Positions 10,955 to 15,634 of a stretch of 40,494 nt of DNA are shown one piece after another. The position numbers and the translations under genes were made by a program. Every line of letters begins with the position of its first letter. Positions within the stretch are counted from its first letter, which is position 1. The notes under the pieces are model-generated. The model was not told the DNA's origin. It ran no database searches and worked only from the letters and a program-made list of their open reading frames with translations. Source of the DNA: an uncultured Massilia sp. (lineage in GTDB: Bacteria; Pseudomonadota; Gammaproteobacteria; Burkholderiales; Burkholderiaceae_D); assembly GCA_913777025.1 (NCBI GenBank), contig CAJYQM010000410.1, forward strand, positions 1 through 40,494. The letters are read 5' to 3'.

Positions 10955-10995
10955 CGCTAGCTGCCTTTCCAGATTGACCCTCCTCGAATTACTAC

Positions 10996-11023
10996 TTGAT
11001 AGTAAAAATATTGCTTACATACT
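10996..11023 (+). promoter_or_regulatory. Candidate promoter of the ExbB/ExbD operon
   Basis: In an unusually AT-rich stretch before exbB, TTGATA (10996-11001) and CATACT (11018-11023) are spaced 16 bases apart. Other pairings such as TTGCTT at 11011 are possible, so the exact boxes are uncertain. AGGAAGGA before the exbB ATG is the ribosome site. Confidence 0.35.
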
Positions 11024-11079
11024 TACCTTCCATGCTACATTAATACCTAGCCAGTTCAACAAGATCAGGAAGGATAACG

Positions 11080-11817
11080 ATGTCCAGCTTTTCGCGCATG
11101 GGTTTCTTCTGTTGCCTGTCCCTGGCCGCCTTGCCGGCCGCGGCCCAGGAATTGAATATCGCGTCCCAGCTTGCCAGCGGCGGCACCGGCGTCTTCGTGA
11201 TCGGTGCCCTGTCGGTGCTGGCGCTGGCGGTGAGCCTGGAGCGCCTGGTCCACCTGCGCGCAGGCAGGCTGGCGCCGCCAGGCCTGGCCGAAGAAGCGCG
11301 TGTCCTGTGGCGCGCCGGCCGCTTCGACGACCTGCGCGCACAGACCACGGACGCGGACAGCATCCTGGCGCGCATCCTGGCCTGGCTGGTCGAGCAGCGC
11401 CACCTGCCGCACGATCAACTGGCGGCGCGCGCCGGGGAGATGGCAGCGCTCGAGCTGCGCCAGCAGCAGCACAAGGCCTATGCTCTGAACGTGGTGGCGA
11501 CCATCGCACCCATCGTCGGCCTGCTCGGCACCGTGGTCGGCATGATCGAATCCTTTCACGTCATCGCCGGAAGCGGCATGGGCGACCCGAGCCTGCTGGC
11601 CGGCGGCATCTCGAAGGCGCTGGTGAATACCGCGGCCGGGCTGTCGGTGGCCTTGCCTTCGCTGGCCATGCACCACTACCTGCGCCACCGCCTCGCCGGC
11701 ATCGGCTTTGTCCTCGAACGCCAGCTGAACGCCGTGCTGGACGAGCTGCGCCCGGCCGCACCGTCATCCGCTTCTTCTGCCGATTCCGCCATCGAGGAGG
11801 CCGCCCATGCGTATTGA
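11080..11817 (+). CDS. ExbB/TolQ/MotA-family proton channel subunit
   Basis: This 245-residue inner-membrane protein has a cleavable-looking signal (ending PAAAQ), a first membrane helix at about 36-56, a cytosolic loop, and two further helices. These carry TIAPIVGLLGTVVGMIESF and NTAAGLSVALPSLAM, the signature segments of ExbB/TolQ with the pore-lining Thr residues. With ExbD it forms the pentamer-dimer motor that turns proton flow into force on TonB-type partners. The ExbD gene overlaps its 3' end by 11 bases, and no tonB gene follows; two TonB-anchored paralogues do. I leave the symbol empty because it is not the canonical exbB locus. Confidence 0.9.
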   Translation: MSSFSRMGFFCCLSLAALPAAAQELNIASQLASGGTGVFVIGALSVLALAVSLERLVHLRAGRLAPPGLAEEARVLWRAGRFDDLRAQTTDADSILARILAWLVEQRHLPHDQLAARAGEMAALELRQQQHKAYALNVVATIAPIVGLLGTVVGMIESFHVIAGSGMGDPSLLAGGISKALVNTAAGLSVALPSLAMHHYLRHRLAGIGFVLERQLNAVLDELRPAAPSSASSADSAIEEAAHAY

Positions 11818-12244
11818 TGTCGACGACGACGAGCAACCCGAGATCGGCCTGATCGCGCTGATCGACTGCATCTTCTTCCTGCTGATGTTCTTCATGGTCG
11901 CGACCTCGTTCAAGCAGAAGCAGGAACAGCACAAGGAAAAGCAGATGTCCATCGTGCTGCCGCGTTCGGCCGCCTCGCTCGACATGGCCAAGGCGGCGCC
12001 GGACCCGCTGGTGATCCGCGTCGACCGCGCCGGCGGGGTGGCGCTGGGCGAGGACGCATCGTCGCCGGCGCTGTCGACCGAAGAGCTGCACGAGCGCCTG
12101 CGCGGGGAAGCCGGCCGCAATCCGGGCCGCCCGGTACGCATCGACGGCGATGGCCGCGTGCCCTACGAATCGATCGTGCGCGTGCTCGACCTGTGCCAGT
12201 TCGAAGGCCTGACCAACATCTCGATGCACACGCGGCAGAAATAG
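11807..12244 (+). CDS. ExbD/TolR-family motor subunit
   Basis: This 145-residue protein has the ExbD plan: a short cytoplasmic start, one membrane helix (IGLIALIDCIFFLLMFFMVATSF) carrying the essential membrane Asp at residue 20, and a periplasmic domain ending in the R-V-L-D-L-C...G-L-T-N-I-S pattern typical of ExbD/TolR. GAGGAGG lies within the 3' end of the ExbB gene before the ATG, and the 11-base overlap implies coupled translation. It should pair with the upstream ExbB and drive the two downstream TonB-anchored proteins. Confidence 0.92.
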   Translation: MRIDVDDDEQPEIGLIALIDCIFFLLMFFMVATSFKQKQEQHKEKQMSIVLPRSAASLDMAKAAPDPLVIRVDRAGGVALGEDASSPALSTEELHERLRGEAGRNPGRPVRIDGDGRVPYESIVRVLDLCQFEGLTNISMHTRQK

Positions 12245-12247
12245 GAC

Positions 12248-13681
12248 ATGGCCGCCTTCATGACGCCGGGCCTGAAGCGGCCGCCGCTGTACGAACCGCT
12301 GCGCCGCCACCCCTGGCTGCCGCTGTCGCTGGCCGCGCACGTGGCACTTGCCGCCAGCCTGTACACGGCCGGTCCCGTGCGGGTCGGATTCAAGCACAGC
12401 GCCGACGTGCGCGTGCACGTCGAACAATCGCTGCGGCAGACGGCGCGGCGCGAAGCGCAGCGCCAGCTGCAGCAGATGGAAGAAATCAGGGAGGCGCTCC
12501 AGCAGAGTGCCGGCGTGCCTTCGAAAGGTGGCGACGCCAAGGCGGCAGCCAAGGACCCGGTCGCCCGCGCACGCCAGCTGGCGGCATCGATCGAGGCGGT
12601 CCAGCAGCAGGTGCGCGCCACCGAGATGGCGCGCCTGCTGAACATCCCGGCGCAGGAAGCGCTCAAGCGCGTGCGGGCGGAGGCGGCGCGCCTGCCCAGG
12701 CCCAAGCCCGCGCGCACCGAAGCGCCCGAGGCCACGGTGGCGCGGCTGGCGGCCCAGGCCAGGGCCGCGCTGGTCCAGCGCCGTGCCCAATTGCTGGCGC
12801 AGCAGCAGGGCACGGCCGTCCAGCCGGGCAAGCGTGCGCCAGGCGATGGCCGTGCCAGCGGCATGGCGAAGGAACGCGGTGCGGCCGGCCCGGGTGGCGG
12901 CAAGAACGGAGCTTCCGACAAAGGGGCGCCTGGCAACGGCGGCGCGAAAGGCGATGGAGGCGACAATACCGGCATGTCGTCGGCCTCCGGCAGCCGTCTC
13001 GAAGCCTTGGCCCGGGGACTGGAAATGGGACCGCCGGGCGCCTTGACCGGTTCCAGCCTGGACATGTCGAGCAGTGCCTTCAGCGACGTCCGCGGCTACG
13101 GCAGCTACCTGGCGCCGCCGCCGCTCGACGCCGCCCGCGTGCGGCCGGGCTTGGGGCGCATACTCGGCGCCGGCGGTCCGTTTGCCAGCAGGGTGGTGCT
13201 CGACACCTGGTACGTGATCGGTCCCTTCGAAGGCCACGGCGGCGACAGCCAGCAGGCGATCTACCCGCCCGAGCGCGGTGTCGACCTGGACGCTGTCTAT
13301 TACGGCAAGAACGACTTGCCGGTGCGCTGGACCTGGCAGCAGGACAGCGCCTACCCCTCGATCCCGCATCCGCGCGCCGAGAACGCGGTGTACTACGCGT
13401 ACACGGAAGTCACGGTCGACGACGATGTCGACCTGTGGGCCTGGATCGGCGCCGACGACGATTCGAAGATGTGGTTCAACGACCGGCTGGTCTGGATCAG
13501 CGGCGACGGCGACAAGCCCTGGTACCGCCAGCCCTTCTACCGCCAGCGCACCGCAGTGGCGACGCGCAACCTGAGCGAAGGGCAGCGCAAGCTGCACTTC
13601 CACAAGGGGCGCAACACCATCCTGTTCAAGCTGTACAACGGCGTGAACCTGATGTTTTATTCGGTGGTGCTGTCGACATGA
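12248..13681 (+). CDS. TonB-anchored coiled-coil protein with PA14-like sandwich domain, paralogue 1
   Basis: This 477-residue protein is not a known named family to me. A cytoplasmic start is followed by one membrane helix at about 24-42 (LPLSLAAHVALAASLYTA) with Ser27-x3-His31, the spacing of the essential Ser16/His20 in the E. coli TonB helix. Residues about 50-190 are charged coiled coil rich in Arg, Gln and Ala, and about 195-245 form a Gly-rich linker. From about 305 a beta-sandwich begins: WYVIGPFEG (W321), VYYAYTEVTVDDDVDLWAWIGADDDSKMWFND and KGRNTILFKLYNG, resembling PA14-type modules that bind glycans. The TonB C-terminal domain is absent. It lies 3 bases after ExbD and its stop overlaps the next gene. 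A glycan-facing, motor-driven role is inference. Confidence 0.62.
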   Translation: MAAFMTPGLKRPPLYEPLRRHPWLPLSLAAHVALAASLYTAGPVRVGFKHSADVRVHVEQSLRQTARREAQRQLQQMEEIREALQQSAGVPSKGGDAKAAAKDPVARARQLAASIEAVQQQVRATEMARLLNIPAQEALKRVRAEAARLPRPKPARTEAPEATVARLAAQARAALVQRRAQLLAQQQGTAVQPGKRAPGDGRASGMAKERGAAGPGGGKNGASDKGAPGNGGAKGDGGDNTGMSSASGSRLEALARGLEMGPPGALTGSSLDMSSSAFSDVRGYGSYLAPPPLDAARVRPGLGRILGAGGPFASRVVLDTWYVIGPFEGHGGDSQQAIYPPERGVDLDAVYYGKNDLPVRWTWQQDSAYPSIPHPRAENAVYYAYTEVTVDDDVDLWAWIGADDDSKMWFNDRLVWISGDGDKPWYRQPFYRQRTAVATRNLSEGQRKLHFHKGRNTILFKLYNGVNLMFYSVVLST

Positions 13682-15018
13682 TCCAGGTCCGCCGCCATCG
13701 ATTCCTGTTGCTGTCGCTTGTGACGCATGCGGCGCTGCTCGGCGTGCTGTACATGGGCGCAGTTCGCGTCCAGCAGGACCAGCAGCGCATCCAGCGCAGC
13801 CGGGAGCAGCCATCGGTCGATGCCGGCGAGCGGCTGATGGAAAGGGCACGGTTGGAGAAGCGCGTGCGCGACATGGAGCGGATCAAGTCCCAGCTGGAGT
13901 CAGGCGCAGCCGGCAAGGACGAGGACGTGCGGTTCAGCGCGCAGCCCAGGACGCCGGAAGAACTGCTCAAGCAAGCCAGGGAACTGTCCCGCAAGATCGA
14001 CGAGATCGAGCGTGCCGCCCGCGCCGAACGACTGGCGAAGCTGCTCCACATCCCGAAACAGAAAGCGCTGGAAAAGGTGGCGCAGACGCGCAAGCCGGAA
14101 GCGCCGGCCGCCGCCGAGCCGCGCAAGCCCGTCGATGCGGCGGCGCAGATCGAGCAGCTCGAAGCGAAGGCACGCGAGGCTTTGGCCCGGCGCAGCGGGC
14201 AACTGGAGCAGCAGCGGGACGGCACGCGCGTGGCGGCGATCGAATCACGCAGCGGCAGCGCTGCGCGGCAGGGCGGACCAGGCAGGCCGGTCGGCAGTGC
14301 CCCGGGCTCGGGGCGCCTGGACGGCATATCCATCTCGGGCGTGTTGGGGGCAATCGATGCATTCATGAAGTCCGACCGGGCCGGCCGGGGGATCGAGGGC
14401 AATATCGTGGCGGGCCCCCACGACGACATCGATCGAACCATCGTGCGCATTCCGGACCTTCCCGCCGGCGCCAGGGTCAAGGGCAAGGGCCGCATCATCG
14501 GGCCCGGCGGCCCTTATGCCGACCGCGTCTACGTCAATCGCTGGTACCTGATCGGTCCCTTCGAGCGCAAGCATCACGACGCCTGGCTGTTGCCCGATCC
14601 GCCCGAGCAGGCCGTCATCCTGGACGCCGCCTATCGCGGCAAGGACGGCCGCCTGCTCAAGTGGGAATACGTCGACTCGGCAAGCTATCCGCTGGTGCCG
14701 CTCCGGCCCGCCGGAGAGGCCGTGTATTACGGCTATACCGAGCTGATGGTCGACAAGGAACAGGACCTGACGATCTGGGTCGGCGCCAACGACGACGCGC
14801 AGCTGTGGCTCAACGACAAGCTGGTCTGGCGCGGCAGGAGCGTGGCCAAGGCGCTGTTCTACAGCGAGGTCAACGACAGCGGCAAGCCCCATGCCGGTGA
14901 TTACAATTTCAGCGAAGGCAAGCGCGTCGTGCACTTGAGACAGGGCCGCAACAAGCTGTTCTTCAAGCTGTCGAACGGATTGGGCTCCCTGTTTTTTTCG
15001 CTGGTGTTGACGAAGTGA
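13678..15018 (+). CDS. TonB-anchored coiled-coil protein with PA14-like sandwich domain, paralogue 2
   Basis: This 446-residue protein has the same order of parts as the gene before it. The membrane helix at about 9-28 (LLLSLVTHAALLGVLYMG) carries Ser13-x3-His17 and resembles the E. coli TonB helix LLSVCIHGAVVAGLLYTS over its length. Coiled coil follows to about 190, then a linker. A beta-sandwich from about 270 has WYLIGPFER (W289), VYYGYTELMVDKEQDLTIWVGANDDAQLWLND and QGRNKLFFKLSNGLGSLFFSLVL, each matching paralogue 1 in order. The start ATG overlaps the previous stop (ATGA), so the two are probably made in fixed ratio. The pair may form a heteromer coupled to ExbB/ExbD. Function is unknown. 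Confidence 0.62.
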   Translation: MIQVRRHRFLLLSLVTHAALLGVLYMGAVRVQQDQQRIQRSREQPSVDAGERLMERARLEKRVRDMERIKSQLESGAAGKDEDVRFSAQPRTPEELLKQARELSRKIDEIERAARAERLAKLLHIPKQKALEKVAQTRKPEAPAAAEPRKPVDAAAQIEQLEAKAREALARRSGQLEQQRDGTRVAAIESRSGSAARQGGPGRPVGSAPGSGRLDGISISGVLGAIDAFMKSDRAGRGIEGNIVAGPHDDIDRTIVRIPDLPAGARVKGKGRIIGPGGPYADRVYVNRWYLIGPFERKHHDAWLLPDPPEQAVILDAAYRGKDGRLLKWEYVDSASYPLVPLRPAGEAVYYGYTELMVDKEQDLTIWVGANDDAQLWLNDKLVWRGRSVAKALFYSEVNDSGKPHAGDYNFSEGKRVVHLRQGRNKLFFKLSNGLGSLFFSLVLTK

Positions 15019-15023
15019 TTCGT

Positions 15024-15634
15024 ATGCACCGTTTATCCGCCATCGCCCTCGCCCTGTGTACAGGGCATGCCGCCATCGCCGCGCCAGCCGTCGACGGGGC
15101 AATCCGGACAGCGTCACCCAGTTGAGCGCCTATTTGTTCGACGGCCAGCCGGTGCACCTGAACGACCAGCTCACGCGCGGCACCGGGCGCGTGTTGCCGG
15201 TGTGGACCCAGCCGGTGGCGAGCGACCTGCGCTTCGGCAGCCGCAAGCCGGTGTTCATCCTGGTCGGCAAGGAGACCTTTTCCGCGGCCGAGAACCTGGC
15301 CTATACGCTGCAGGCGCTGAAGCGCGCGACCATCGTCGGCGTCCCGACCGGCGGCGGTGCACACGGCGGGCGCGGATTCAGGCTGTCGGCCCACTTCATC
15401 GGCGGCATCCCGAATCGCCGGACGGTGAATGCGATGACGGGCGCGGACTGGGAAGGGAAGGGCGTGCAGCCCGACGTGCGCGTCGACGAAGCGCAGGCGC
15501 TGCAGGCGGCGCAGGCACTGGCGGCGCAGGCCATCGCCGCCGCCCCGCTCAATCCGACAGCGAAGGCACGGACGGCGGCAGGACCTGCTTCGGCGCCGGC
15601 GTCTTGTCCTTGTACTCGCACAAGTCGGCGATGA
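15024..15634 (+). pseudogene. S41-family peptidase gene with a large internal deletion
   Basis: ATG at 15024, five bases after the previous stop, begins a signal peptide (MHRLSAIALALCTGHAAIAAPAVD). The frame then closes at 15125. From about 15097 another frame continues GNPDSVTQLSAYLFDGQPVHL, then VFILVGKETFSAAENLAYTLQALKRATIVGVPTGGGAHGG, which is the C-terminal catalytic half of S41 (tail-specific/IRBP-like) proteases including the Ser of the FSAAE nucleophile motif. So signal and catalytic end are joined by a deletion that removed several hundred bases and shifted the frame. The reading frame runs on into the convergent nth gene (86-base overlap). It was probably the fifth gene of the ExbB/ExbD operon and is now non-functional. 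Confidence 0.75.

What the first reader, a model, noticed from the sequence alone, without database searches (positions are those of the whole stretch)
11080..15018. ExbB/ExbD operon in which TonB is replaced by two TonB-anchored sandwich proteins
After a clear ExbB and ExbD come two proteins with no TonB C-terminal domain. Each has one N-terminal membrane helix with Ser-x3-His (S27/H31 and S13/H17), the spacing of Ser16/His20 in E. coli TonB, which are needed to engage ExbB/ExbD. In the second protein the helix resembles that of TonB over about 18 residues. Each then has a coiled coil across the periplasm and ends in a PA14-like beta-sandwich. Genes overlap or abut (11-base overlap, 3-base gap, ATGA). 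This suggests a proton-driven machine that moves a glycan- or wall-binding head instead of pulling on TonB-dependent receptors. I know no named system of this kind.
Basis: partly seen in the sequence, partly recalled or inferred. Interest (0 to 1): 0.85.

Follow-up and report, generated by a model that had tools for sequence, protein, structure and literature searches.

The report
ExbBD motor with PA14-like arms
Some Massilia-type bacteria carry a proton-driven membrane motor (ExbB/ExbD) whose usual pulling arm, TonB, appears to be replaced by a long arm with a TonB-style membrane anchor and a sugar-binding-like head, pointing to an undescribed force-transmitting machine of the cell envelope.

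Summary
ExbB, ExbD and two related proteins (X1, X2) form one overlapping operon in a Massilia genome. X1/X2 match no Pfam or NCBIfam family above cut-off; none of 31 homologues matches TonB_C in Pfam. The Ser/His idea survives a test: in 31 homologues the four most conserved columns of the helix region are H31 (31/31), S27 (30/31), L38 (29/31) and G42 (28/31), the spacing of the SHLS motor-binding motif of TonB/TolA with the last Ser turned Gly. exbB-exbD-X order holds at 25 of 27 loci, 21 of them with a single X, so the pair is the exception. The head is predicted as a beta-sandwich nearest PA14 and GH2 sugar-binding domains, but misses the Pfam PA14 model. Closest precedent: SHLS-anchored vWA force transducers (PMC12204202). 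'Instead of TonB-dependent receptors' is untested and partly contradicted by context: the upstream dyad's only other copy in this genome precedes a receptor gene, and 3 of 10 loci outside the usual site have a receptor gene nearby. Verdict: real; a new variant of a known kind, function open.

The parts
10989..11005 (.). 17-base dyad TTACTA-N5-TAGTAA upstream of exbB (putative operator)
   Evidence: perfect inverted repeat; 2 places match TTRCYA-N5-TRGYAA in the genome, reversed control 0
11033..11041 (+). TGCTACATT, -10-like element that recurs in upstream regions of several homologous operons (read by eye)
   Evidence: upstream sequences printed; by eye only
11080..11817 (+). exbB-type proton channel subunit, 245 aa
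   Evidence: Pfam MotA_ExbB 1.1e-24; E. coli S34, T148, T181, P190 kept, W38 and E176 not
11807..12244 (+). exbD-type subunit, 145 aa, pore Asp kept (E. coli D25)
   Evidence: Pfam ExbD 6.9e-26; Asp in 26 of 26
12248..13681 (+). X1 (alpha type): TonB-anchored protein with sandwich head, 477 aa
12311..12370 (+). X1 membrane helix with S27, H31, L38 (SHL of SHLS); G42 follows
12401..12808 (+). X1 helical periplasmic arm, residues 52-187, followed by a Gly-rich low-confidence linker to about residue 313
   Evidence: AlphaFold2 model
13148..13678 (+). X1 C-terminal PA14/GH2-like beta-sandwich (residues 301-477)
13678..15018 (+). X2 (beta type): TonB-anchored protein with sandwich head, 446 aa
13699..13758 (+). 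X2 membrane helix with S13, H17, L24
14482..15015 (+). X2 C-terminal sandwich domain
   Evidence: profile A4 match E 5.7e-83
15098..15478 (+). remnant of an S41 (IRBP-type) peptidase gene; a complete relative follows exbB-exbD-X in L012
   Evidence: Pfam Peptidase_S41 2.9e-13; 72% identity to residues 191-317 of the 338-aa L012 protein, the N-terminal part not matched

Best explanation
exbB-exbD-X is a self-contained proton-driven force transducer. ExbB5/ExbD2 makes the motor (family membership shown by HMM; stoichiometry from established knowledge). X docks its single N-terminal helix on the outside of ExbB through the Ser-x3-His-x6-Leu face used by TonB and TolA (motif register shown; binding inferred). 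A TolA-like helical arm plus a Gly-rich linker crosses the periplasm (predicted). A PA14/GH2-like sandwich head then grips a target at the wall or outer membrane (fold predicted at moderate confidence; ligand unknown), so that proton flow pulls on or releases that target. X1 and X2 are two alternative heads for one motor, since each type occurs alone at other loci. The operon may share an operator with a TonB-dependent receptor and secreted S41 peptidases (inferred from the dyad only).
Confidence: 0.6

Rival explanations
1. X is a specialised TonB substitute that still serves TonB-dependent receptors: the head recognises a particular receptor or its partner instead of the usual Ton box.
For: The strict upstream dyad occurs at 2 places in this genome: before exbB, and 58 bases before the first ATG of a TonB-dependent receptor ORF. 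Of 30 sites inspected in the genus, 4 lie before receptors of that kind. At L069 a receptor gene is the next gene on the same strand after X, 31 bases from the X stop to its first possible start; at L070 and L017 receptor genes lie within about 2 kb of X on the other strand.
Against: Three of the four receptor sites are in genomes without X (G768, G763, G783: no match). The receptors near L069, L070 and L017 fall in different neighbour clusters, the three loci are sister loci, and none was looked for at the 17 loci of the usual site beyond the clustering. The head has no TonB_C match.
Confidence: 0.2
2. A Tol-like envelope-stability machine: the head holds peptidoglycan or an outer-membrane lipoprotein, and the motor recycles it at division or under wall stress. 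(A narrower form of the best explanation.)
For: The ExbD-type subunit scores best against the TolR model among NCBIfam hits, 57 bits, below the cut-off of 127; helical arm as in TolA domain II; S41 peptidase after X in L012 and, as a remnant, in the window.
Against: A separate Tol-type locus is present. No tolB- or pal-like neighbour recurs among the clusters, as far as names can be read by eye.
Confidence: 0.25
3. X is a membrane-tethered sensor or lectin that does not receive force; the gene order reflects shared regulation only.
For: W38 of ExbB is lost and two loci have X alone.
Against: The SHLS register is the most conserved part of an otherwise variable helix; exbBD stays beside X at 25 of 27 loci.
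Confidence: 0.1
4. An ordinary TonB with a diverged TonB_C domain.
For: E. coli TonB-like helix.
Against: 0 of 31 members match TonB_C in Pfam at E <= 1; head predicted as a sandwich of about 180 residues.
Confidence: 0.02

Closest known systems
SHLS-anchored vWA force transducers beside tolQR-like genes (PMC12204202, section 8 read)
   Same: Motor genes followed by a protein with one SHLS helix, a linker and a non-TonB C-terminal domain; function unknown.
   Different: Head is vWA there and a predicted beta-sandwich here; they are reported in five phyla, X was found only in the window's own family in the genomes sampled; in the PVC group a TPR gene accompanies them, none recurs here by eye.
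TonB-ExbBD
   Same: ExbB/ExbD motor; Ser-x3-His-x6-Leu helix; periplasm-spanning arm.
   Different: No TonB_C match, helical rather than proline-rich arm, ExbB W38 and E176 replaced. A receptor gene is nearby at only 3 of 10 off-site loci scanned.
TolQRA
   Same: Motor, SHLS-type helix, helical domain II.
   Different: No TolA C-terminal domain found; not in a tolB-pal operon; a separate Tol-type locus is present.
PA14 / Flo5-like lectin domains (e.g. Cea1A) and GH2 sugar-binding domains
   Same: Predicted sandwich; Asp-Asp loop in the PA14 position in the profile alignment; an invariant Asn (N464) near the C-terminal strands, as the Ca2+-binding Asn lies in CBL2 of Cea1A (my reading; no coordinates checked).
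   Different: Not matched by the Pfam PA14 model; tethered to a motor in the periplasm.

Membership tests
ExbB/TolQ/MotA (PF01618) | Pfam family match and pore threonines | tested here: met
   1.1e-24, 87 bits against cut-off 22.9; T148 and T181 26/26
ExbD/TolR (PF02472) | Pfam family match and pore Asp | tested here: met
   6.9e-26; Asp 26/26
TonB | SHLS membrane helix, first three residues | tested here: met
   S 30/31, H 31/31, L 29/31 in register
TonB | last Ser of SHLS | tested here: not met
   Gly in 28/31; the source says Leu and Ser are less conserved in Ton
TonB | TonB_C domain | tested here: not met
   0 of 31 members in Pfam at E <= 1
TonB | proline-rich domain II | tested here: not met
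   helices 52-88, 104-131, 135-148, 160-187 in X1
TonB | D-box that binds ExbD | tested here: inconclusive
   motif described in PMC10907165 (passages); the stretch after the helix is short and low-confidence
TolA | TolA match over cut-off; tolB-pal operon | tested here: not met
   tolA_full E 0.75 for X2 over residues 32-207 only; operon neighbours by eye
vWA force transducers (PMC12204202) | vWA C-terminal domain | tested here: not met
   C-terminal domain predicted mostly beta; no vWA family among the 22 listed
PA14 (PF07691) | Pfam match over gathering score | tested here: not met
   not listed for any of 31 members at E <= 1
PA14 (PF07691) | PA14 sandwich fold | tested here: inconclusive
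   PA14-bearing chains among the top Foldseek rows, tied with or below GH2 domains in VIA; by sequence a lipocalin is the best PDB hit, E 0.0011
PA14 lectins | DcisD plus Asn calcium site | tested here: inconclusive
   D404 and N464 invariant, D405 nearly so in 31; site described in PMC6218569 passages; geometry not checked
Zorya and other defence motors | PADLOC model match | tested here: not met
   only PbeC E 0.06 for X2

The most novel reading that the evidence does not exclude
A motor-driven periplasmic lectin: a class of Ton/Tol-type machine in which proton flow pulls on a Ca2+-dependent PA14-like glycan-binding head that holds cell-wall or outer-membrane glycan, with interchangeable alpha and beta heads on one motor, switched on with secreted peptidases and a TonB-dependent receptor.
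Probability: 0.25. Interest if true: 0.85.

Novelty: new variant of a known kind. Interest (0 to 1): 0.6.

Why it matters
It would add a second C-terminal design, after vWA, to the SHLS-anchored force transducers. That would show that the Ton/Tol helix is a portable motor-docking module onto which heads can be swapped. It also gives a natural test of which ExbB residues are needed for docking, since this family keeps Ser34 and Pro190 but not Trp38, and a tractable non-model system in which two heads share one motor.

Tried and rejected
Hidden TonB_C domain: none. Sequence relatives of X in the PDB: none significant for the whole protein; for the head, lipocalin chains 7l5k (E 0.0011) and 6ubo (E 0.038), aligned over 114 positions; I set this aside because the fold searches show no such barrel among the rows listed, but it is not disproved. 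Defence system: no. X on plasmids: none with X1 as query. Head-only relatives elsewhere in the phylum: two weak rows in 299 genomes (E 0.004 within a 4014-aa frame; E 0.038 with stops inside), not followed. ExbD-based search for sister motors: in 249 genomes, at E <= 1e-20, one hit outside own genome (G468), whose exbD is followed by an aspartokinase-like frame by eye, not an X; its ExbB also has Lys at the E176 position by eye, so that change is not special to X systems. Constant partner gene beyond exbBD: none found by clustering. BlaI-type regulator as reader of the dyad: recalled resemblance only; one paper search gave nothing useful. Genes beside control sites were not examined. Of the 30 sites for which loci were given, 15 lie before exbB, receptor, S41 or hydrolase genes; of the other 15, 3 are inside ORFs, 2 precede a YajC-like gene, and the rest have other or no called genes downstream. 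My dyad score uses a consensus taken from the same sequences, so it is circular; strict matches were found in 6 of 25 upstream regions, and at L058, L062, L016, L018, L019 and L071 nothing convincing. Alignment A2 was out of frame and was not used.

Full report
WHAT IS THERE. ExbB and ExbD match their Pfam families strongly; X1 and X2 match none, and the NCBIfam tolA_full row for X2 is E 0.75 over residues 32-207. The window belongs to a genome of 4.73 Mb, 83.5% complete. Its genus is Massilia: three contigs of named Massilia records found have the same lengths as contigs of genomes labelled 'same genus' (622443, 57627 and 547939 bases). NCBI puts Massilia in Oxalobacteraceae; the family of the genome search is unnamed and may be drawn differently.

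SPREAD. With X1 as query 6 of 97 genomes of the window's family match, in 3 of 44 genera; with the profile A1, 22 of 61 of the genus, 3 of 300 of the order and 2 of 398 of the phylum, the hits of the last two sets being own-genus genomes. A pattern scan of 84,980 species of all phyla with X1, which reaches close relatives only, gave 3 loci, all Massilia. No plasmid match. No phylum but the window's own was searched with a profile. So the family is patchy within its own family and unseen outside it in these samples.

GENE ORDER. I examined 27 loci with X in 25 genomes. exbB and exbD lie directly upstream in 25. The exceptions are L015 (G018) and L065 (G782). G018 has exbBD elsewhere, followed by a 33-residue match to X (L020), which looks like a deletion; G782 has a complete operon at L064. 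Five loci have two intact tandem X genes (window, L054, L066, L067, L068), L063 has a remnant plus an intact copy, and the other 21 have one X, frameshifted at L072. Seventeen of the 27 loci, and L020, share one chromosomal site with rnfB-like (and mostly nth-like) genes downstream, named by eye; the other 10 lie in surroundings that share no neighbour cluster with each other. The motor and X therefore travel as a unit. Of 10 large neighbours scanned at off-site loci, three are TonB-dependent receptors: at L069 the next gene on the same strand after X (31 bases from the X stop to its first possible start), at L070 and L017 within about 2 kb on the other strand. These three loci are sisters in the tree but their receptors fall in different clusters. 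Massilia-type genomes carry many receptors (recalled), and I have no rate for random genes, so this is context, not proof. Other neighbours scanned include GH3 (L073), GH28 (L017), S9 peptidase (L019) and EAL/GGDEF (L065) proteins.

ANCHOR. In the 31 complete X sequences (alignment A3; dropped: L072 frameshifted, the first copy at L063, the L020 remnant, the own-genome fragment on C392) I ranked columns 19-46 of X1 by entropy. The four lowest are H31 (31/31), S27 (30/31, one Ala), L38 (29/31) and G42 (28/31). This is Ser-x3-His-x6-Leu-x3-Gly; in X2 and three others the Gly comes one residue earlier. The SHLS motif of TonB and TolA is Ser-x3-His-x6-Leu-x3-Ser; its Ser and His touch ExbB Ser34 and Trp38, Trp38 touches Pro190, and the His is essential (PMC12215075, passages seen). 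By position count alone four of 28 columns fall in this register by chance about 6 times in 10,000; this ignores that helix faces are conserved together and that the sequences are related. The dropped L072 copy has Ala at the Ser position. In ExbB, 26 sequences keep Ser34, Thr148 and Thr181 in all and Pro190 in 25, but have Leu (21), Val (4) or Met (1) for Trp38, Lys (25) or Gln (1) for Glu176, and His for Asn196 in all, whereas the genome's own canonical ExbB and TolQ keep all three; ExbD keeps the pore Asp in 26. So the docking face is kept on X and half kept on ExbB: a real difference from Ton and Tol.

ALPHA AND BETA. The tree puts X1 with eight others (support 91/98, not starred) apart from X2 and its relatives. 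Alpha alone occurs at loci L062, L064 and L071 (G782, which holds L064, has a beta-side copy at L065); beta-side types alone at most others; both occur as alpha-beta (window, L066-L068) or beta-alpha (L054, L063). L073 and L074 sit on long branches and are unsure. One motor can evidently be paired with either head.

REGULATION, A LEAD. The 125 bases before exbB are 40% G+C in a 65% window and contain the perfect dyad TTACTACTTGATAGTAA. TTRCYA-N5-TRGYAA has two places in the genome: this one and C331:4639-4655, 58 bases before the first ATG of a 737-aa TonB-dependent receptor ORF (Plug 6.8e-18, barrel 3.1e-29). Over 62 genomes of the genus there are 90 sites against 78 for the reversed pattern, so no clear overall excess. 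Yet of the 30 sites for which loci were given, 4 lie before exbB of this operon (L135, L136, L140, L141), 4 before a receptor of the C331 kind (L125, L129, L149, L150; tblastn E 3e-120 to 5e-126), and 5 before S41 peptidase genes (L124, L138, L146, L151 by Pfam; L147 by its N-terminal sequence only), with single cases of a beta-lactamase-family and a DLH-type hydrolase; the other 15 show nothing of the kind. In the window and in L012 an S41 peptidase gene, broken here and complete there, follows the X genes. Without a null for genes beside control sites this is suggestive only. With the receptor neighbours above it speaks against a strict reading of 'instead of TonB-dependent receptors'.

HOW IT PROBABLY WORKS. 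Shown: motor subunits, anchor motif, near-constant linkage, no TonB_C match. Predicted: helical arm, sandwich head. Inferred: docking on ExbB, force transmission, glycan or wall contact, shared operator. The nearest thing in print that I found is the vWA class of SHLS transducers (PMC12204202, section 8 read in full), whose authors write that more PMF-driven envelope systems remain to be discovered. Searches for ExbB/ExbD/TonB with PA14, with TolA/His20, with TolQ/MotA neighbourhoods, with force transducer and vWA, and with Massilia showed no description of X in their listings (open-licence papers only; besides that section I saw passages of PMC12204202, PMC12215075, PMC8262864, PMC6218569 and PMC10907165).

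VERDICT. Real, conserved and not described as far as these searches show; a new variant of a known kind, with the function open.

Noticed in passing
window 15098-15478: Remnant of an IRBP-type S41 peptidase gene after X2; a complete relative follows exbB-exbD-X in L012 (Massilia MAG).
   Followed up: partly
window 10989-11005 and L123 4639-4655: Same dyad before exbB and before a TonB-dependent receptor gene; in relatives also before S41 peptidase genes. The regulator is unknown.
   Followed up: partly
L069 2455-4773: A TonB-dependent receptor gene directly follows X on the same strand, as if in one operon.
   Followed up: partly
L021 2-271 (G000 contig C392): C-terminal piece of a third X gene at a contig end of the same genome.
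   Followed up: no
L020 and L015 (G018): exbBD with only a 33-residue X match at the usual site, and a complete X without exbBD elsewhere in the same genome.
   Followed up: partly
window 11080-11817: ExbB subfamily with Lys instead of the Glu at the E. coli E176 position; also seen by eye in a distant ExbB in L108.
   Followed up: partly
L132 (G018): A TonB-like proline-rich protein starts about 227 bases after a dyad site; may be chance.
   Followed up: no
L142 and L152: The dyad lies 75 bases before a YajC-like gene in two genomes.
   Followed up: no
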